DNA of 45,526 nucleotides, from IMG/VR virus record IMGVR_UViG_3300047472_000308, positions 1 through 45,526 of that record. One strand, written 5' to 3'. Both the position numbers and the translations under genes were made by a program. The DNA comes from a virus. The notes below the pieces were generated by a model. That model saw nothing but the letters and a program-made list of their open reading frames with translations. It was not told the origin of the DNA and ran no database searches. Shown here one piece after another: positions 14,116 through 25,287 of the stretch. Every line of letters begins with the position of its first letter. The stretch's first letter is position 1.

Positions 14116-14859
14116 ATGCAGCCCGACGAACTCCGCGCCCTCGCCGACCGAATCGACCACGAGGAACTGTGGCGTCGCGCTGGCATGGAGCGCGACCAGA
14201 TGACGCCGGAGCAGCGCGACCGCCTGGATGCAGGGGTCAACCTGCGCCGCTACGCGAGTGATCGTGGCACGGTCCTCGAAGCGCTCAAGGAAGGCCGCGA
14301 GTTCATCCGCGGCTACAAGCTCACCCGCACGGACGGCGGCACCGATGCTCGCGGCTGCGGCACGAACGGATGGCACGCAGCGATCAACGCCTTCTCCGAC
14401 AGCGGCTTCTACGCGCGCCCGGCCGACGGCCGCAGCAAGGATTGGCCGAAGATGATGTACGAGGCCAAGAAGCTCGCCGACGAAGTGCCTCGCATGATCT
14501 TGCTCTTCGAACGGGAGCGCGCGGGCCAGTTGCCGCAGGCCTGGAAGATGTGCGGCCACGACCAGCGCCCTGCGTCGCCACTGCCCGACAACCACCTGCG
14601 CTGCGCACTCGACAAGGAATGCAGGCGGTGCCCATACCTCGCCGCGATTGAGGCCTCACCGACGATGACGGCCGAGGCTAAGGACGAAGCGAAGGCGTGG
14701 ACGTGCGCGACGCACATCCTTCGGGAAACCACGACCAATCATCACATCGAAGAGTTCATCTGGGAGAAGAGTTCCGTGGCTTTCCACGAGCGCATGGCGC
14801 GCAGCTTCGCGGAAATGGAATCGCCGGAGTCTGACCTCAACCCGCCGGAGGGCACATGA
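14116..14859 (+). CDS. Hypothetical phage protein with C-terminal Cys set
   Basis: 247 aa from ATG 14116 (a TTG at 14110 is in frame). The first third is charged and helical; the centre has FSDSGFYARPADGRSKDWPKM; the C-terminal third holds Cys residues spaced like a metal site (CGHDQRP, CALDKECRRCPYL, WTCATH). No catalytic motif recognised. Its TGA overlaps the Gp37-like start (ATGA). Cytoplasmic. Confidence 0.68.
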   Translation: MQPDELRALADRIDHEELWRRAGMERDQMTPEQRDRLDAGVNLRRYASDRGTVLEALKEGREFIRGYKLTRTDGGTDARGCGTNGWHAAINAFSDSGFYARPADGRSKDWPKMMYEAKKLADEVPRMILLFERERAGQLPQAWKMCGHDQRPASPLPDNHLRCALDKECRRCPYLAAIEASPTMTAEAKDEAKAWTCATHILRETTTNHHIEEFIWEKSSVAFHERMARSFAEMESPESDLNPPEGT

Positions 14860-15848
14860 GCGCCAACAGCAAGATCGAGTGGACGGACCACACGTTCAAC
14901 CCATGGATCGGGTGCACCAAGGTCTCTATCGCGGCCACGGGCGGCGGTGGGTGTGACCACTGCTACGCCGAGGTGAGCACGCCGGCGCGAGTCCTGCGCA
15001 GCAAGGGCGACGAAACCTGGGGCGCCCGCGCACCGCGCGTTCGAACGAGCGAGGCGAACTGGAAGCTGCCGAGACGCTGGAACGCACAGCACGAAGCCTT
15101 CTTCGCACAGCACGGCCGCCGCCAGCGCGTGTTCTGCGCCAGTCTCGCCGACGTGTTCGACAACGCGGTTGATCCTATGTGGCGGAGCGAGTTGTTCATT
15201 CTTATCAGCGAGACGCCCAACCTCGATTGGCTCCTGCTCACGAAGCGAATCGGCAATGTGCAGGCCATGCTGCCGGTCTGGTACCGGGATCCCGCCGCAT
15301 GGGAGGGCGGCAACGGCCGGGCGCATGCGAACGTTTGGATCGGCGCCACCGTCGTGAACCAGGCGGAGGCCGACCGCGACATCCCCAAGCTGCTGGACGT
15401 ACCCGCCGCGAAGCGCTTCCTGAGCATGGAGCCGCTGCTGGGGCCGGTGGATCTGCAGAAGTCGTGCACGGCTCGCTGCCCGAACGGCGACTGCTTCCCG
15501 CACAGTTCCGGCCACCGCGTCGTGGTGGATTCCGAGAGCGGCGGCCTTTGTCTTGAATGCATCTGCTCGCGGCTCAACGGCCTGCACTGGGTGATCGTCG
15601 GCGGCGAGAGCGGGCCAGGCGCGCGGCCCATGCATCCCGACTGGGCGCGAGCCCTGCGCGATCAGTGCGCGGCCGCCGGCGTGCCCTTCTTGTTCAAACA
15701 ATGGGGGGAGTGGTTGCCTGCGCTACAGGACGGCGATCCCAATGCGAGCACATGGGAGGTCAATGCCAGCGACTCGCCAATCAAGGTCGGCAAGAAGGCC
15801 GCCGGACGGCTGCTCGATGGCCGCACGCATGACAAGGTGCCAGCGTGA
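14856..15848 (+). CDS. Phage Gp37/Gp68 family protein (DUF5131)
   Basis: 330 aa. The family signature is plain: KIEWTDHTFNPWIGCTKV, then CDHCYAE, SLADVFDN, DWLLLTKRI, ANVWIGATVVNQ, FLSMEPLLGP and WVIVGGESGPGARPM. The Cys set at the start resembles radical-SAM clusters, but here an extra Gly-rich run (ATGGGG) splits the first Cys from the CxxC pair compared with the usual GCTKVSPGCDNCYAE. A Cys-rich insert (CTARCPNGDC) lies near residue 205. The activity of the family is unknown. It is paired with an ASCH-like gene, a common phage couple. Confidence 0.88.
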   Translation: MSANSKIEWTDHTFNPWIGCTKVSIAATGGGGCDHCYAEVSTPARVLRSKGDETWGARAPRVRTSEANWKLPRRWNAQHEAFFAQHGRRQRVFCASLADVFDNAVDPMWRSELFILISETPNLDWLLLTKRIGNVQAMLPVWYRDPAAWEGGNGRAHANVWIGATVVNQAEADRDIPKLLDVPAAKRFLSMEPLLGPVDLQKSCTARCPNGDCFPHSSGHRVVVDSESGGLCLECICSRLNGLHWVIVGGESGPGARPMHPDWARALRDQCAAAGVPFLFKQWGEWLPALQDGDPNASTWEVNASDSPIKVGKKAAGRLLDGRTHDKVPA

Positions 15849-16495: not shown

Positions 16496-16878
16496 AGCGG
16501 GGTCTGACGCACGCCGAGGCGATTGAGTACGTCGGCGTCAAGCGCCGCACATTCGACGACGTGTGGCGGCCCAAGCTGGCGCCGATGCGCCAGGGCAGTT
16601 GCCTGATCTTCGACCGCCTCGACCTTGATCGGGTGTTCGACGAATTCAAGGCCGCGGCGGCCACGCCGGCGATGAACGATGACGCCGGCGCCACCCGGCC
16701 CCACAATGGCGCCCGGAACGGACGGCCCATTCAAGAAAGAGGAGAAAGTAAATGGGCCAAACAACTCGGGGTATCTACCCCGGTGAGAACGGAACCTGGC
16801 AGGTCGACAAGTGGTGGCGCGGCGATCGATTTCGCCAGCGTGGCTTCGGCAGTTTTGAAGAGGCGGAACGCTGGCTGA
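16492..16878 (+). CDS. Excisionase-like HTH protein
   Basis: 128 aa, ATGA overlap with the ASCH-like gene. Residues ~3-55 fit a winged-helix/AlpA-type fold (LTHAEAIEYVGVKRRTFDDVW, GSCLIFDRLDLDRVFDEF). The tail (PIQERGESKWAK, VRTEPGRSTSGGAAIDFAS, LKRRNAG) recurs in proteins placed directly before integrases of temperate phages. It overlaps the integrase gene by 127 nt in another frame, tying excisionase and integrase levels together. Role as directionality factor inferred from fold and place. Confidence 0.75.
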   Translation: MKRGLTHAEAIEYVGVKRRTFDDVWRPKLAPMRQGSCLIFDRLDLDRVFDEFKAAAATPAMNDDAGATRPHNGARNGRPIQERGESKWAKQLGVSTPVRTEPGRSTSGGAAIDFASVASAVLKRRNAG

Positions 16879-17933
16879 TCGATCGGCTGGCGGCCAGGCG
16901 CGAAATCGTGGTGCATGGCGCGCGCGAGATCCGCAGCTTCGAGGCCGCCGCAGCGCACTACGTGACGCTCAACCAGGACAAGACTTCAATCGAGACGGAG
17001 ATCCACCTTCTGAAGAGCGTCATGCCGAGCATCGGATCGTTGGAGCTACATCAGGTCCACGACGCCACCCTGGCGCCGTATGTGGCTGCGCGCCTGGCCG
17101 TGGGACGATCGCACAAGACGGTCAACCTAGCGCTGGGCGTCGTCCGCCGAATCCTCAACTTGTCGGCCACAAGCTGGCGGGACGAGGCCGGGCGTACATG
17201 GCTTCAGCAGGCGCCGAAGATCACGATGCTGCCGCTGGTCGGGTTCCAACGCGAACCTCGCCCCATCACCTGGGGTGAGCAGCGCAAGCTGCTGCCGGCG
17301 CTGCCAGACCACCTGGCTCGCATGTCGTTGTTCACCCTGAACACCGGTGTACGCGACGACGTGGTCTGCAACCTCCGGTGGGCCTGGGAGATCAAGGTGC
17401 CCGAGCTGGGCATCTCGGTGTTCGAGGTGCCGAGGCAGCATGTGAAGGGCAAGCGCCAGGCGCGGGTGCTGGTGTGCAACAGCGTCGCCCAGTCGATCAT
17501 TGAGTCCGCACGTGGCCAGCACGCAGAGTTCGTCTTTGTATGGCGCCGCGAGCGGGTGAAGAACGTTGACCAGGCGCCGGCGATGCCGTACCGGCCGATA
17601 GCGTTGATGAGCAACAACGGCTGGATGCGTGGCCGGGCGAAGGCCGGGTTGGCCGACCTACACGTCCACGACCTGCGCCACACAGTGGGCATGCGCCTGC
17701 GGGAAGCGGGTGTTTCCGAGGCCACGCGGGCGGACATCCTGTGGCACTCGACCGGGTCGATGACCAACCACTACAGCGTGGCCCAGATCGCCGAGCTGCA
17801 TGCGGCGCTGGAGGCGATCAAGGCCGACTCGGGGCGGTGGAACAAGAGCCTGGCGACGCTCCGCCGCGAACAGGAAGAGGGACGGCAGGACGTGAGTCCC
17901 CCAGAAGTCCCCCGACAAAAGAAAACAGCCTAG
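16752..17933 (+). CDS. int: Tyrosine-family integrase
   Basis: 393 aa, complete. The catalytic set of tyrosine recombinases is visible: R201 in NTGVRDDVV, K in HVKGKRQ (~232-234), H306/R309 in HDLRH, H332 in LWHSTG, nucleophile Y341 in NHYSVA. The N-terminal ~60 residues (GIYPGENGTWQVDKWW onward) form an arm-binding domain, then a core-binding domain. The gene stops 39 bp before the tRNA-Arg 3' half used as attachment core. The start ATG 16752 has GAGG upstream and overlaps the excisionase-like gene. The protein joins phage attP to the host tRNA gene and reverses this with the excisionase. Confidence 0.95.
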   Translation: MGQTTRGIYPGENGTWQVDKWWRGDRFRQRGFGSFEEAERWLIDRLAARREIVVHGAREIRSFEAAAAHYVTLNQDKTSIETEIHLLKSVMPSIGSLELHQVHDATLAPYVAARLAVGRSHKTVNLALGVVRRILNLSATSWRDEAGRTWLQQAPKITMLPLVGFQREPRPITWGEQRKLLPALPDHLARMSLFTLNTGVRDDVVCNLRWAWEIKVPELGISVFEVPRQHVKGKRQARVLVCNSVAQSIIESARGQHAEFVFVWRRERVKNVDQAPAMPYRPIALMSNNGWMRGRAKAGLADLHVHDLRHTVGMRLREAGVSEATRADILWHSTGSMTNHYSVAQIAELHAALEAIKADSGRWNKSLATLRREQEEGRQDVSPPEVPRQKKTA

Positions 17934-17953: not shown

Positions 17954-18045
17954 TTGATTCATAAGGAAAAAATGGTGCGGCTGGCAGGAATTGAACCCAC
18001 GACCCCTTGGTTCGTAGTTTGGTTGCCGCCGCTAAGTTGTTGATT
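17947..18045. other. attP: attP: tRNA-Arg(ACG) 3' half with flanking arm repeats
   Basis: Read on the minus strand, 18017-17973 is the last 45 nt of a tRNA: anticodon loop CTACGAA (anticodon ACG, Arg), stem strand CCAAG, variable loop, T arm with GGGTTCAATTCC, acceptor strand and encoded CCA. To its right the sequence does not pair as a tRNA 5' half, so this is an integration core and not a tRNA gene. The 13-mers TAAGCTGTTGATT (17947-17959) and TAAGTTGTTGATT (18033-18045), differing by one base, flank the core in direct orientation and are good candidates for integrase arm sites. Both arms around one core mark attP. Confidence 0.85.
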
Positions 18046-18213: not shown

Positions 18214-18762
18214 TCACACCTTGGAAGGTTCGATGTGGACCACCTTGGAAAGCAGGAACTGCTGTACTGCCAGCGATTCAGGACCTTGCCACGGAACGGT
18301 GTAAAGCCCCGAATGTGGGTCAAAACGCATGTCAGTCATCAGGCGCCCCTGCCCGGAGCGATATGCATTCCAAACTCTTGGCACGTGGCGGCAGAACAAT
18401 CCGCTCCAACGACGACTCTCCACTCGATACCCCTGCAGATCTGCCACCCGGACTGCCGCCAAGCGACCCGACTTCTGGAGCTTTAACTCTGGATGCGACG
18501 ACGAAGTCATAAATAGCCGAAGCGCCTCAAAGCTACTGGCCATTGTCGAAACTGGCTGCAAGTATTCGAGCCAATGGACAGAGACGTAACTCTCACCGGG
18601 ACGCGGGGAAAAAGCCTGGGGCAACAGACTGTTACCCTGAATATCTTTCTTTCGCACCACCCGCACGACATGATGGCCCTGAGGGATTCTGCGAAAAAAC
18701 GCTAACTCCCACCATCTAAAAACACGCTCGCCGAAGGAAAGGATTGAAGTAGTTCCTTCCAA
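18214..18762 (-). CDS. Cassette protein C, hypothetical
   Basis: 182 aa from TTG 18762, with AGG 8 nt upstream; no in-frame ATG lies near. It overlaps the upstream gene by 61 nt. The core HHVVRVVRKKDIQGNSLLPQAF then SYVSVHWLEYL, and the end FDPHSGLYTVP with ESLAVQQFLLSKVV, looks like a family I have seen only as uncharacterised. Soluble and mixed alpha/beta, with no catalytic motif. Third gene of an A+T-richer cassette beside attP, typical of a moron. The start is the weakest part of the call. Confidence 0.68.
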   Translation of the reverse strand: MEGTTSILSFGERVFRWWELAFFRRIPQGHHVVRVVRKKDIQGNSLLPQAFSPRPGESYVSVHWLEYLQPVSTMASSFEALRLFMTSSSHPELKLQKSGRLAAVRVADLQGYRVESRRWSGLFCRHVPRVWNAYRSGQGRLMTDMRFDPHSGLYTVPWQGPESLAVQQFLLSKVVHIEPSKV

Positions 18763-19316
18763 TTTGCCTGCCCCCAGTTTCGTTTGACTTTTTTTCCAGA
18801 TTCAAGTGCCCATGCGTATTCGACTGTATCATCCTCAAAGAATTTGATACTGAGCATGGAATCTTGGCTAATGCGCCACGTAGCGATGAGCCGACCGTTC
18901 GAATCAGATGCGATCAATGGTGACATCTTGACTGAGTTTTCACTCAAAAACCTGTCCATTGATTCAATAGAACGCGCCGCTGGGAACGCCTCATCATCCT
19001 CCATGGCATATTTGAGCAGATCAAAAATTCGCCGACGGACTGAGTCCTTAACATCCGAACCTGAATAGGCTCCCAACTCCTCATCCGCCGCGTAAGCAGA
19101 CGCGCCTAATGCACTGTCACCGTACGAATATTCCGGCGCATACTCACTCGCAGTTGAGGGCGGCTGCCGTTGGATCACTCCGAAAGTACCTAGAGCCTTG
19201 CCCGAAGGATAGGTGAAGAACTGCGTGAGGGACTCAACAAGCGAACCCCGATTGGGTTCGCCGTCATACGGCGAGAATGAAGATGTGGCCGGCGAAAGTG
19301 CGATTGCTGTCGTCAT
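18702..19316 (-). CDS. Cassette protein B, hypothetical
   Basis: 204 aa, ATG 19316, 9 bp after the TIGR04255 gene. The N-terminal ~75 residues are Ser/Tyr/Ala-rich and probably disordered; then a helical region (DSVRRRIFDLLKYAMEDDEAF) and a C-terminal beta domain (NGRLIATWRISQDSMLSIKFF, EYAWALESGKK). The W-x-x-L-x-I-x-F-x-x-D-x-V-x-Y-x-W layout of the last domain recurs in small orphan proteins of mobile DNA. No function assigned. Base composition is lower in GC than the phage core genes, as for both neighbours. Confidence 0.72.
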   Translation of the reverse strand: MTTAIALSPATSSFSPYDGEPNRGSLVESLTQFFTYPSGKALGTFGVIQRQPPSTASEYAPEYSYGDSALGASAYAADEELGAYSGSDVKDSVRRRIFDLLKYAMEDDEAFPAARSIESMDRFLSENSVKMSPLIASDSNGRLIATWRISQDSMLSIKFFEDDTVEYAWALESGKKVKRNWGQANWKELLQSFPSASVFLDGGS

Positions 19317-19325
19317 CAGTTTTTC

Positions 19326-20117
19326 CTACGAGGTACGCTTCCAAAGACGCTGCTGCGCGTCGATGCTCGTGACCTCACAGAAGCCCTCGACGATCGCATC
19401 ATGAGCAAGCTGATACCACTCCTCTTCAGAGGACCTTAGTTGATCTGCGGGACACTGCGCTGCGAGTTCCATTCGCAGGACCGGTTGCTGCGTTTCATTA
19501 TTGCGTGCCGAGCCAATCGTGAGGGCCATCTTGCCGGGGCATTTTCTCAATTCAATATCAAATTTTATAAATCCTTGCTCAAGCCTTCCCAATTTTTCGA
19601 ATTGAGAAATGAAATCAAAATCCTTAAACAGAGCTCTTAGATCGGAGGTGTCGTTCCAATCGACACCTTTTTTGAAGACATTGATATAGGTCAAGTCCAA
19701 CCGAACTGTTTTTAATGGAGTTGCCAGTTGGCTTACAACGAACGAGTCAAGTATTTGAGAATACTTCGAAAATCCTGCAAATATCTTTTCAAACCGAATG
19801 TACTCGCGCGTTTTATCCGTCAACTGCCGCCAGTTGTAATAGAACCGATCATGCTGTAGCTGGAGCAGCTGCGTCTGCTCAGCAGATACAAACCATGCTC
19901 GTTGGCTTGGATGGTTTGCGACAAGGATCTGGATCTCCCCATTCGCCAACATCGTAGGCGGATCCATGACCGGCGGCATGCCCCGGTACTGCGGGAACTC
20001 CGCCTCCACCAAGCCCCAGAATTTACCTACGTGACCAGCGGTAAGGTCGGGCCTGGATCCGAACACGCGGCCGACGACCACTTCGTCGATTGGGGGTTTT
20101 TCGAAGGTAATGGCCAT
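19326..20117 (-). CDS. TIGR04255 family protein (cassette protein A)
   Basis: 263 aa from ATG 20117, chosen because MAITFEKPPIDEVVVGRVF is the typical start of the family. The hallmark AWFVSAEQTQLLQLQHDRFYYNW is at residues ~77-100, followed by YIRFEKIFAGFSKYSQIL. TIGR04255 members are sporadically spread among bacteria and phages, with unknown activity. It leads a three-gene operon with A+T-richer sequence between attP and the SOS region, so it is likely acquired and expressed from the prophage. A defence or exclusion role is inference. No clear Shine-Dalgarno precedes the ATG. Confidence 0.82.
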   Translation of the reverse strand: MAITFEKPPIDEVVVGRVFGSRPDLTAGHVGKFWGLVEAEFPQYRGMPPVMDPPTMLANGEIQILVANHPSQRAWFVSAEQTQLLQLQHDRFYYNWRQLTDKTREYIRFEKIFAGFSKYSQILDSFVVSQLATPLKTVRLDLTYINVFKKGVDWNDTSDLRALFKDFDFISQFEKLGRLEQGFIKFDIELRKCPGKMALTIGSARNNETQQPVLRMELAAQCPADQLRSSEEEWYQLAHDAIVEGFCEVTSIDAQQRLWKRTS

Positions 20118-20901: not shown

Positions 20902-21165
20902 TCAGGGCGCCGCGCGAAACATCGCGGTGCGCAGCGATTCAACCGCCTGCACCCGCGCATCCGAATAACCGCGTTCGCTGGCCAGAAGGCCGGCAATGGT
21001 CTGCTCAAACATGGCCTCAAAGGTTGCCGTGAGTCCCGCACGCTGCGCCTCAGGCTGCTGGCTCACCAGCGCCTTCAACAGGAAGGCCGTGAAGCCCGCC
21101 ACTACGGCGTGCTGGGACTCCAGCGAGTCCAGCCGCGCGCGCAATTCCGTGATGTCGTCCGTCAT
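20902..21165 (-). CDS. Small coiled-coil protein, hypothetical
   Basis: 87 aa, ATGA overlap with the yedK-like gene. It starts with a heptad pattern (ITELRARLDSLESQHAVV), then two helices. No recognised domain. The overlap suggests co-translation with the SRAP protein and thus shared SOS control. Confidence 0.65.
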   Translation of the reverse strand: MTDDITELRARLDSLESQHAVVAGFTAFLLKALVSQQPEAQRAGLTATFEAMFEQTIAGLLASERGYSDARVQAVESLRTAMFRAAP

Positions 21166-21866
21166 GGCGCCTCCAAGTCTCGCTGCTCTGCTAACTCCGC
21201 CGGTGGAACGATTGGGCCGGCCGCAAACGCTTCGACGGGCGTGAGCCGCAGCAGCGCGGCGGCCTCCTCCATCGTGCCAGCAAGCCAGGTGTCGACATCA
21301 GCGAGCTCGATCGGGATCACCGACCGCTTGTCCTGCTTGTCGGGCGCGAGCTTCGGATCCGGCTTGTGCATGCGGTTCATCAGCGGGTGCGCGTCGGCGT
21401 TGAGCGTGAGCATCGTGTAGCTCTCGACCACCTCCCCCGTCGCCTTGTCCGTCCAGGTGTTCCAGAGCCCGGCCAGGCCCCACGGATCGCCGTCGGCGCG
21501 GCGGAAGTTCCACCACACATTCTTGCCGCTCTCCCAATTCGGTTCGTCGAAGCTGGCGGCCGGGATGATGCAGCGCTGGCCACGCGCCCAGGGCAGCTTG
21601 TACGTGGCCTTGGCGGCCAGCTCCTCGCTGCGGGCGTTGTTCGTCGAGTATTTCAGCTTCGGCCCGTCGGCGAACCACGGCACCAGGGCCCACTGCCCGA
21701 TGACCAGTTCACGCGAGTAGTCGGCGTCATTTCGCGCGCGGCGGATGAACGGGCCGGGCGAGCGCGGGAACACACCGCGTGGCCACAGGCTGGGCTGGTT
21801 GCCGCGGCCGACGTGCCAGAAGCGCTCGACCTCGCGCTCGATCGGCGTCTCGTATCGGTTGCACAT
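21162..21866 (-). CDS. yedK: SRAP (YedK/HMCES-like) abasic-site protein
   Basis: 234 aa. Cys2 (MCNRYETP) is the residue that in YedK/HMCES forms a covalent link to abasic sites once Met is removed. Other family marks: ALVPWF, TNNARSEEL, RCIIPAASFDEPNW (active-site Glu region), SYTMLTLNADAHPLMNRMH (active-site His). The protein shields abasic sites in single-stranded DNA. The sequence belongs to the phage/plasmid branch, judging by KQDKRSVIPIEL. A perfect LexA-type box lies 26 bp upstream of its start (21892-21907), matching the name SOS response-associated. Confidence 0.9.
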   Translation of the reverse strand: MCNRYETPIEREVERFWHVGRGNQPSLWPRGVFPRSPGPFIRRARNDADYSRELVIGQWALVPWFADGPKLKYSTNNARSEELAAKATYKLPWARGQRCIIPAASFDEPNWESGKNVWWNFRRADGDPWGLAGLWNTWTDKATGEVVESYTMLTLNADAHPLMNRMHKPDPKLAPDKQDKRSVIPIELADVDTWLAGTMEEAAALLRLTPVEAFAAGPIVPPAELAEQRDLEAP

Positions 21867-23557: not shown

Positions 23558-23881
23558 CTAGCGGGGGACGATGTCCAGTTGGACGGTGCGGGCGATTTCT
23601 TCGCCGTTCGAAAGCCGCATCCAGTACTCGATCGCGAAGCGCTGCCCCAGCGTGCCGCCGCTGACCCTGGGCACGGAGACCGTGGTCTCATCAAACAGCA
23701 CTTCGCCCTCTTTCCCCAGCCCATCGGCCAGATCGGCGGTCGCCTCAACGATGGTGATTCCGTCACCGAGCTCGGCGAGGTATTCGCCCATGTCGAGGCT
23801 GTAGGTAAGCTTCTCCCTCACTCCCTTGGGAATGGTCGGCAGGCCATCCGGCCCTGGTGTGTAGGTGACGATGACGTTCAT
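23558..23881 (-). CDS. Small beta-rich structural or accessory protein
   Basis: 107 aa, ATGA overlap with the repeat protein gene. Beta-rich throughout (MNVIVTYTPG, LTYSLDMGEYLAELGDGITIVEA, IARTVQLDIVPR), like an Ig-type domain. Such short beta proteins beside fibre genes are often virion accessory parts. Placed between the repeat protein and the endolysin. Confidence 0.68.
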   Translation of the reverse strand: MNVIVTYTPGPDGLPTIPKGVREKLTYSLDMGEYLAELGDGITIVEATADLADGLGKEGEVLFDETTVSVPRVSGGTLGQRFAIEYWMRLSNGEEIARTVQLDIVPR

Positions 23882-25287
23882 GGTTTCTGGACCTCATAGG
23901 TTCTTTTCTCTGGAGGCACGCCGAACTCCCGATCCTCGGCGTCGACCACCAGGACACGGCGCTCCGCCGGCACGACATAGGTGCGCTCGGTGCGCTCGAA
24001 GACATAGGCGCGCAGGCGCAGCGCACCGAACGTCAAGGAACTCGGGATGCCGATGCAGACAAGCTGGTATGGATCGAGGTGCTCCGCACCCAGTGCCGGG
24101 GTTCCGACTCGCGCGCTCGACGGAATTGCAAGCACTCCGAGTTCGAGCGCGAGCGACGGCACGCCCATCCACTCATCCGCGGGGACGCCGGGCACGGCAA
24201 ATCCGAGCGAAGGCGCCGGGACGCCGAAGCGCTCAGCAGTCGGCGAGCCGGCAGCATCGATGCGCAGCACAAGCGACGGCGCTCCGAACTTCTCCGCCGA
24301 TTCGATCGACGGCAGTATCAGGTCGGCGGCGTCTCCGCCCAGGGCCAGCACGCCGAACGCCTCGGCAGGCAAGATGCCGGGCGGCGTCAGGCCGAGGACA
24401 ATCGAGGCTGCCCCGAAACGCTCGCCGGTCGGGATCCCCGCCGTCACCACGCCAAGCGCCATCACAGGCGCACCCACGGCCTCAGAGCCTGGGGCACCGC
24501 CGACGCTCGCGACTGCGATGGAGAGAGAGCCGCTGCCGACCTTCGAGGCTCCCGGTACCCCGGACACTGCGAGCGCAGCCCCCAGCGTCGGCGCACCAAG
24601 CGCCTGAGTGCTTGGGATACCGGGCGGGGCGATGCCGAGGCTCATTGCCCCTATGCCGAAGGCCTCGGCACCTCTGACCTGGCCAACGGCCGTCATCGAG
24701 ATGCCGCCGCCAGCGTTCAGTACCCACTGCGCAGCGAAAACGGCGATGTTGGCGGAGATGCCAGTGGCGGTCTGCACGAAGATCCGCACGCGCAGCGTCT
24801 GGCCGGCGCTGGCCGCCGCGTAGTCGACGGTCACGACTCCGGTCTTGACATTGCCGGTCGTCGCGGACACGGTGCTCGTGTCGCTCACGTCCGTGGCGCT
24901 GTTGTCGCTCAGGTGGAACGAGACGCCCAGCACCGCCTCGTAGCAACTCAGGTCGACGCGCGCGCGCCGGCTGTTGGTGTCCGCAGGCAGCGTGAACTCG
25001 ATGCCGTCCCCGGTCTGGCTGAAGGGCGGACCGTCGTTGCGGTCGTTGTAGACATTGCCCGTCCACGTGCCCGAGGCGGGTGAGACGCCGCCGGTGAAGG
25101 GGATGGTGTAGGGATCGCCGGAGTACCGGTTCAGCGCGCCGTTGTTGAAGACCGAGAGCCCCGAGATGGTCCCGCCGCCACCGGACTTGGTGTTGTCCGT
25201 CGGTCCAAAGAGGCGCCAGTCGGCCGCGCCGGCGACGGTTCCGGACGTAGCCCCGGTCGTGAACGAGACGATCGACAGCGCGGCCAT
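23878..25287 (-). CDS. Virion protein with ~20-residue GIPS-x-E-x-FG repeats
   Basis: 469 aa. The N-terminal ~200 residues form a beta domain (SIVSFTTGATSGTVAGAADW, SGTWTGNVYNDRNDG). Residues ~205-435 hold about ten imperfect repeats of ~20 residues with the pattern G-I-P-S-x-E-x-F-G-A-P-S-L-x-L (GIPSTQALGAPTLG, GIPTGERFGAASIVLG, GSPTAERFGVPAPSLG). A short C-terminal tail ends REFGVPPEKRTYEVQKP. Repeats of this type occur in phage surface or fibre-like proteins. In the late operon after the tail fibre group, so a host-binding or capsid/tail decoration role is likely. Confidence 0.78.
   Translation of the reverse strand: MAALSIVSFTTGATSGTVAGAADWRLFGPTDNTKSGGGGTISGLSVFNNGALNRYSGDPYTIPFTGGVSPASGTWTGNVYNDRNDGPPFSQTGDGIEFTLPADTNSRRARVDLSCYEAVLGVSFHLSDNSATDVSDTSTVSATTGNVKTGVVTVDYAAASAGQTLRVRIFVQTATGISANIAVFAAQWVLNAGGGISMTAVGQVRGAEAFGIGAMSLGIAPPGIPSTQALGAPTLGAALAVSGVPGASKVGSGSLSIAVASVGGAPGSEAVGAPVMALGVVTAGIPTGERFGAASIVLGLTPPGILPAEAFGVLALGGDAADLILPSIESAEKFGAPSLVLRIDAAGSPTAERFGVPAPSLGFAVPGVPADEWMGVPSLALELGVLAIPSSARVGTPALGAEHLDPYQLVCIGIPSSLTFGALRLRAYVFERTERTYVVPAERRVLVVDAEDREFGVPPEKRTYEVQKP

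What the first reader, a model, noticed from the sequence alone, without database searches (positions are those of the whole stretch)
18214..20117. Three-gene A+T-richer cassette with TIGR04255 beside attP: candidate new defence or exclusion system
Three leftward genes (TIGR04255; a 204-aa protein with a Trp/Tyr beta domain; a 182-aa protein with VHWLEYL and DPHSGLY motifs) are tightly packed, overlap, differ in base composition from the core genes and sit between attP and the lysis region, where morons gather. None has a known activity, and all look like families of sporadic spread. If they travel together, they form an undescribed system.
Basis: partly seen in the sequence, partly recalled or inferred. 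Interest (0 to 1): 0.75.

Follow-up and report, generated by a model that had tools for sequence, protein, structure and literature searches.

The report
Phage-borne three-gene toxin–antitoxin-like module
A temperate phage carries, right beside the site where it inserts into the host chromosome, a foreign three-gene operon that belongs to a widespread and apparently undescribed family of toxin–antitoxin-like modules, all headed by the same protein of unknown function (TIGR04255) and ending in interchangeable toxins.

Summary
Three leftward genes (TIGR04255 = T, 263 aa; M, 204 aa; C, 182 aa) form a compact operon of 50–54% G+C in a 65% G+C phage. They lie about 200 bp from a tRNA-Arg(ACG)-derived attP. 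The central bet, that the three families travel together, holds. Of 90 TIGR04255 loci with downstream sequence, 68 have M+C homologues next. In 369 gammaproteobacterial genomes searched with C alone, 10 of 10 hits have M directly upstream and 9 have T before it. M and C match no Pfam, PHROG, NCBIfam or PADLOC family.

The function reading shifts from "defence or exclusion system" to a tripartite toxin–antitoxin-like module. TIGR04255 genes without M/C mostly head other three-gene operons. There the third gene is often a known toxin (VapC/PIN, MazF, YhaV) and the middle gene an antitoxin-like protein (MazE, MqsA-type HTH). By position, M is the antitoxin, C the toxin, and T a constant extra component with a two-lobed, weakly TBP-like predicted fold. 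The closest working analogue is the toxin–antitoxin–chaperone (TAC) module, but T is not SecB-like. Toxicity, neutralisation and anti-phage activity are untested. No paper in the held library names TIGR04255.

The parts
19326..20117 (-). T: TIGR04255 family protein, 263 aa, first gene; predicted two-lobed beta-alpha fold (weakly TBP-like)
   Evidence: NCBIfam 40.7 bits vs cut-off 30; AlphaFold2 pLDDT 93.7, pTM 0.90; Foldseek best to TBP-fold proteins, prob 0.9-0.99 but TM 0.3-0.4
18702..19316 (-). M: 204-aa middle protein; poorly conserved N-terminal ~90 aa plus conserved C-terminal domain; antitoxin/adaptor by position
   Evidence: A profile of middle genes trained without the window finds it at E 0.0024 among 9167 ORFs; iterated profiles 2.9e-6 and 2.9e-9; no Pfam family
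18214..18762 (-). C: 182-aa third protein (TTG start, overlaps M by 61 nt); near-invariant R24, S61, H150 retained; toxin/effector by position
   Evidence: A profile of this protein alone finds 14 homologues after iteration, each two genes downstream of TIGR04255; family alignments; model of the relative L030 pLDDT 93.8, no PDB match E<0.1
17973..18017 (+). attP core: 45 bp identical (1 mismatch) to the 3' part of tRNA-Arg(ACG)
   Evidence: blastn to L005 9251-9295 and ARAGORN tRNA-Arg at L005 9251-9327
16752..17933 (+). tyrosine integrase
   Evidence: tblastn matches to annotated integrases in 156 phage records; 70-72% identical in L003-L005
17924..17955 (-). weak terminator-like hairpin between integrase stop and attP that could end the leftward operon transcript
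   Evidence: consensus scan only; number of such sites not above shuffles

Best explanation
The cassette is one version of a large family of tripartite toxin-antitoxin-like modules whose constant first gene is TIGR04255. Shown: T, M and C are a conserved, near-obligate gene trio, and the T slot is shared with other trios whose third gene is a known toxin and whose middle gene is antitoxin-like. Inferred: C is a toxin whose active site probably includes its conserved Arg, Ser and His; M is its antitoxin or adaptor; T is a dedicated third partner that stabilises or licenses the M-C complex and acts as the sensor. A trigger, plausibly another phage's infection or loss of the operon, would disrupt T or M and free C, stopping growth of the lysogen and so protecting the resident prophage's niche, much as CmdC-CmdA-CmdT does. 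The phage carries it as foreign cargo next to attP, so it would sit at one extreme end of the prophage.
For: Trio linkage: 14 C homologues found from the window protein all lie 927-1156 bp past a TIGR04255 stop; 68 of 90 TIGR04255 loci with room carry M and C; a reciprocal search by C in 369 genomes gave 10 hits, 10 with M and 9 with T adjacent. Swappable partners: in random draws from four groups, 33 of 89 TIGR04255 operons carry M and/or C and most others carry a different middle and third gene. Toxins and antitoxins in those slots: PIN 5 (+PIN_3 1), YhaV 6.8e-46, PemK/MazF 5.8e-19 (Pfam); MazF 4.5e-34, VapC, MazE 3.4e-7, MqsA-type HTH antitoxin 4 members at best 1.4e-4 (NCBIfam); L264 is T-MazE-like-MazF with 4-nt overlaps. 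Partner type clusters on the T tree: 6 changes for 4 states over 92 rows, as expected if T is matched to its partners. Mobility: foreign base composition, phyla intermixed on the T tree (36 changes, minimum 12), a plasmid copy beside a MobF relaxase.
Against: No toxicity or neutralisation data exist for C or M, and neither resembles a known toxin or antitoxin by sequence or, for C, by fold. The slot argument transfers function between non-homologous proteins. Most alternative third genes are themselves unnamed (the 'CDL', HEAT-partner and DUF7689 types). The chaperone-addiction idea in its simple form failed: middle proteins have no excess of hydrophobic N-terminal segments (0.27 vs 0.30 in controls; M 0.01). 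T is not SecB-like.
Confidence: 0.6

Rival explanations
1. It is a dedicated anti-phage defence system in which T (two-lobed, possibly nucleic-acid- or protein-binding) senses phage, M is an adaptor and C the effector, with no toxin-antitoxin neutralisation in uninfected cells.
For: Sporadic spread (2.7% of 369 gammaproteobacterial genomes by C, 9.5% by TIGR04255); prophage-end location; some type I R-M neighbours.
Against: No PADLOC model matches (weak Csx19 0.0065); 5 R-M neighbours around 40 loci is not decisive against 20 control loci; sister operons carry classical TA pairs.
Confidence: 0.2
2. It is a plain addiction/stabilisation module that keeps the prophage in the lysogen by post-segregational killing; T is an accessory chaperone or regulator with no sensing role.
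For: Location on a temperate phage and on a mycobacterial plasmid; TA-type partners in sister operons.
Against: Mostly chromosomal distribution; only one other copy in IMG/VR with this motif and none found in INPHARED phages, so it is not a typical prophage stabiliser.
Confidence: 0.12
3. C is an ADP-ribosyltransferase-type toxin of the ART fold (Arg-Ser-His), making this a CmdTAC-like system.
For: Beta-strand placement of Arg, Ser and His; several DarT chains among weak Foldseek matches (TM 0.34, prob 0.06-0.08).
Against: No significant structural match; hhalign with DarT, RES, KptA and DUF952 gives probability under 1, though known ART families also fail to find each other in that test.
Confidence: 0.1
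4. The three genes are ordinary metabolic or virion-related cargo without conflict function.
For: No direct activity is known for the window's own three proteins.
Against: Sporadic cross-phylum spread, swapping of third genes for RNase toxins, foreign composition, position at the prophage end.
Confidence: 0.05

Closest known systems
TIGR04255 (NCBIfam sporadTIGR04255, subfamily model of unknown function)
   Same: The first gene is a member above the curated cut-off and keeps the residues near-invariant in 99 aligned relatives (P9, E12, F19, R73, Y106, E141, Y144, W259)
   Different: The family model names one protein; the three-gene operon context and its variable toxins were not found in any paper searched
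Toxin-antitoxin-chaperone (TAC) modules, incl. CmdTAC (PMC11618068, PMC5105189, PMC6377645)
   Same: Three-gene operon; variable toxins with a constant third partner; plausible sensor-antitoxin-toxin logic
   Different: T has a two-lobed TBP-like predicted fold, not SecB; no hydrophobic addiction tail found; gene order is T-middle-toxin
Panacea/DUF4065 hyperpromiscuous antitoxins (PMC8832971, PMC10440598)
   Same: One constant protein associated with many unrelated toxins
   Different: No DUF4065 domain; here the constant protein is a third component and the antitoxin slot also changes
Type II TA pairs MazEF, VapBC, YhaV, HicBA, HEPN
   Same: These toxins, or proteins that look like them, fill the third slot of sister TIGR04255 operons
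   Different: The window's M and C belong to none of these families and an additional first gene is present

Membership tests
TIGR04255 | score above curated cut-off | tested here: met
   40.7 vs 30 bits, residues 5-149 of 263
TIGR04255 | family-conserved residues retained | tested here: met
   alignment of 99 members; the Q-x-Q-x-D-R-F-x-x-N-W-R stretch is biased because it was the search pattern
T-M-C trio (defined here) | M and C homologues directly downstream of T on one strand | tested here: met
Type II toxin-antitoxin | toxin or antitoxin of a known family | tested here: not met
   no Pfam/NCBIfam/PADLOC match for M or C; met only in sister operons
Type II toxin-antitoxin | toxin inhibits growth and is neutralised by its antitoxin | not testable with these tools
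   needs expression experiments
TAC module | SecB-like chaperone | tested here: not met
   T matches TIGR04255; Foldseek best hits TBP/guanidino-kinase folds, no SecB among the 50 listed
TAC module | antitoxin with chaperone-addiction extension | tested here: inconclusive
   M has a poorly conserved N-terminal stretch, but no excess of hydrophobic segments
Panacea (DUF4065) systems | DUF4065 domain | tested here: not met
   no Pfam match
ADP-ribosyltransferase / DarT | ART fold | tested here: inconclusive
   DarT only as weak Foldseek match; hhalign uninformative
PADLOC defence systems | match to a defence model | tested here: not met
   only Csx19 at E 0.0065

The most novel reading that the evidence does not exclude
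TIGR04255 is a universal sensor/licensing subunit of a new class of tripartite toxin-antitoxin immune modules. It is a two-lobed protein that clamps antitoxin-toxin pairs of many unrelated kinds (MazEF, VapC, YhaV, HEPN, and the new M-C pair) and releases the toxin on phage infection. The window's phage carries one as superinfection immunity, with C a toxin of a new enzyme family.
Probability: 0.3. Interest if true: 0.88.

Novelty: new variant of a known kind. Interest (0 to 1): 0.72.

Why it matters
If right, an unassigned protein family found in roughly 6-10% of sampled genomes becomes the hallmark of a combinatorial class of three-component toxin–antitoxin systems. That would give a rule for finding new toxins (the third gene) and new antitoxins (the middle gene) from genome sequence. 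It also supplies two protein families absent from Pfam (M and C), a candidate toxin with a high-confidence model unlike any solved structure, and a testable case of a temperate phage carrying such a module next to its attachment site.

Tried and rejected
Single-protein searches of IMG/VR, plasmids, phages and genome contigs found nothing; a relaxed plasmid search gave the first lead, and a Q-x-Q-x-D-R-F-x-x-N-W-R DNA pattern opened the family. The Caballeronia plasmid hits (H17/H18) look like chance: the hit covers 43 codons and no TIGR04255-like ORF was seen there. Hydrophobic chaperone-addiction tail in the middle proteins: not enriched, rejected. ART/RES/KptA/DUF952 relation of C: no support, and the positive controls also failed. 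Sequence search of PDB with T, M and C profiles: nothing significant. Csx19 and InvE_AD weak matches to T: ignored (E 0.0065 and 0.026). Defence-island enrichment: suggestive only. Promoter scan: none found. Exclusion (membrane/virion) reading: no support.

Full report
WHAT IS THERE. The window is a 45,526-bp linear IMG/VR virus record. Three leftward ORFs occupy 18214-20117: T (19326-20117, 263 aa), M (18702-19316, 204 aa) and C (18214-18762, 182 aa, TTG start). M starts a few nucleotides after T's stop codon and C overlaps M by 61 nt. Their G+C is 50-54% against 65% for the window, with GC3 0.51-0.59 against about 0.8 for core genes. The integrase ends at 17933, and a 45-bp stretch at 17973-18017 matches a tRNA-Arg(ACG) gene beside the integrase of a related prophage (L005) with one mismatch, so attP is real. 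In a related phage (L003) the stretch between attP and the lysis genes is only about 0.8 kb and holds other sequence. The place is therefore a variable cargo site, and after integration the cassette would lie at one end of the prophage.

KNOWN FAMILIES. T scores 40.7 bits against TIGR04255 (cut-off 30). M and C have no significant match in Pfam, NCBIfam, PHROGs or PADLOC, nor do 79 M-family and 70 C-family members match any Pfam family convincingly. No paper in the 5.39-million-paper library contains the name TIGR04255, and none contains the presumed InterPro labels, which I supplied from memory.

DO THEY TRAVEL TOGETHER? Yes. A relaxed plasmid search gave a Mycobacterium paragordonae plasmid with TIGR04255 followed by two overlapping small genes. 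A DNA pattern for the motif Q-x-Q-x-D-R-F-x-x-N-W-R found one IMG/VR contig, with a tyrosine integrase just upstream of the trio, and 117 genome stretches from many phyla. A profile built from the window's C alone found 14 homologues among 9167 ORFs, every one 927-1156 bp past a TIGR04255 stop. A profile of the middle genes, trained without the window, recovered the window's M at E 0.0024. Profiles iterated from the other viral contig's genes reached the window's M (2.9e-6) and C (7e-9). Of 90 TIGR04255 loci with more than 1.3 kb of downstream sequence, 68 carry both M and C. These loci were selected by T, so I reversed the test. C searched in 369 gammaproteobacterial genomes hit 10; all 10 have M directly upstream and 9 have TIGR04255 before it. 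In the tenth an unrecognised 219-aa gene fills the T slot.

WHAT THE FAMILY LOOKS LIKE. TIGR04255 was found in 35/369, 18/289, 21/247 and 19/246 genomes of four groups drawn evenly. Of 89 such loci 33 carry M and/or C, and most others have a different middle and third gene in the same compact arrangement. Pfam on 108 of these proteins finds PIN (5, plus one PIN_3), YhaV toxin (6.8e-46), PemK/MazF toxin (5.8e-19), HTH_3 (10) and HEAT (5). NCBIfam finds MazF (4.5e-34), VapC, MazE (3.4e-7) and, weakly (best 1.4e-4), four MqsA-type HTH antitoxins. The scan reports counts, not members; by reading the sequences, toxins fall in the third slot and MazE/HTH proteins in the middle slot. L264 is a clear T–MazE-like–MazF operon. 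By eye only, other third genes look HEPN-like (L160, L272, L273, L275) or HicA-like after a HicB-like middle gene (L261, L262, L285). Partner type is strongly clustered on the T tree: 6 changes for four states over 92 rows.

MECHANISM. By positional homology M is the antitoxin or adaptor and C the toxin or effector. C has three near-invariant residues, Arg, Ser and His (window R24, S61, H150). The model of its relative in Pseudomonas benzenivorans is confident (pLDDT 93.8) but has no solved counterpart; one viral protein of unknown function shares the fold (A0A9E7QQI2, TM 0.5, prob 1.0). T's model (pLDDT 93.7) is two lobes of beta-alpha architecture; Foldseek favours TBP-fold proteins with high probability but TM only 0.3-0.4. 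I infer a shared ancestral architecture at most, not TBP function. The working analogy is the TAC module: in CmdTAC the chaperone CmdC senses phage capsid, antitoxin CmdA is degraded and toxin CmdT is freed (PMC11618068). T is not SecB-like, and a simple hydrophobic addiction tail is not enriched in the middle proteins, so membership in TAC is rejected while the working analogy stays open.

DEFENCE? Possible, not shown. PADLOC type I restriction enzymes match 5 of 150 neighbouring genes around 40 cassettes and none of 150 control genes, but the control set holds a Wadjet locus. Phage carriage looks rare: one other IMG/VR contig with this motif and none found in INPHARED.

VERDICT. The interpretation moves from an unspecified defence/exclusion cassette to a member of a broad TIGR04255-headed class of tripartite toxin–antitoxin-like modules. 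Linkage is near certain; the toxin–antitoxin reading is inferred (about 0.6); the anti-phage role is a hypothesis.

Noticed in passing
L013 5740-6324, L045 1915-2520, L089 4718-5308, L268 394-981, L258 2629-3279 and others: A recurrent third-gene family in TIGR04255 operons with the signature TQGDLI..CP...VVMTQACDLEQ.KV; no Pfam name surfaced for it.
   Followed up: partly
L261, L262, L285: TIGR04255 followed by HicB-like and HicA-like genes (judged by eye), suggesting HicBA pairs also joined the module.
   Followed up: no
L160, L272, L273, L275: TIGR04255 operons whose last gene looks like a HEPN protein (SRAYY...RADYE motifs, by eye).
   Followed up: no
L028, L046, L058, L068, L070: A mostly myxobacterial group in which the middle gene is a HEAT-repeat-like protein and the third an unnamed protein.
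   Followed up: partly
L080 857-1672 (-): M-family protein carrying an extra C-terminal part directly before a VapC-like PIN gene: a possible hybrid of the M type and a VapBC pair.
   Followed up: no
L189 8463-9119: In one genome (G184) M and C are preceded by a 219-aa protein not recognised as TIGR04255, a possible divergent or replacement first component.
   Followed up: partly
L109 3899-4327 (-): An M-C pair on the strand opposite a T-M pair, apparently without its own T in the 8-kb tile.
   Followed up: no
window 21162-21866 (-): ORF beginning MCNRYETPIEREVERF looks like an SOS-response-associated peptidase (SRAP/HMCES type), next to the cargo site (recognised by eye).
   Followed up: no
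window 14856-15848 (+): ORF MSANSKIEWTDHTFNPWIGCTKVS... resembles phage Gp37/Gp68-type (DUF5131) proteins (recognised by eye).
   Followed up: no
window 23878-25287 (-): 469-aa protein built of degenerate repeats (..FGAPSLVLRIDAAGSPTAERFG..), probably a tail-associated repeat protein.
   Followed up: no
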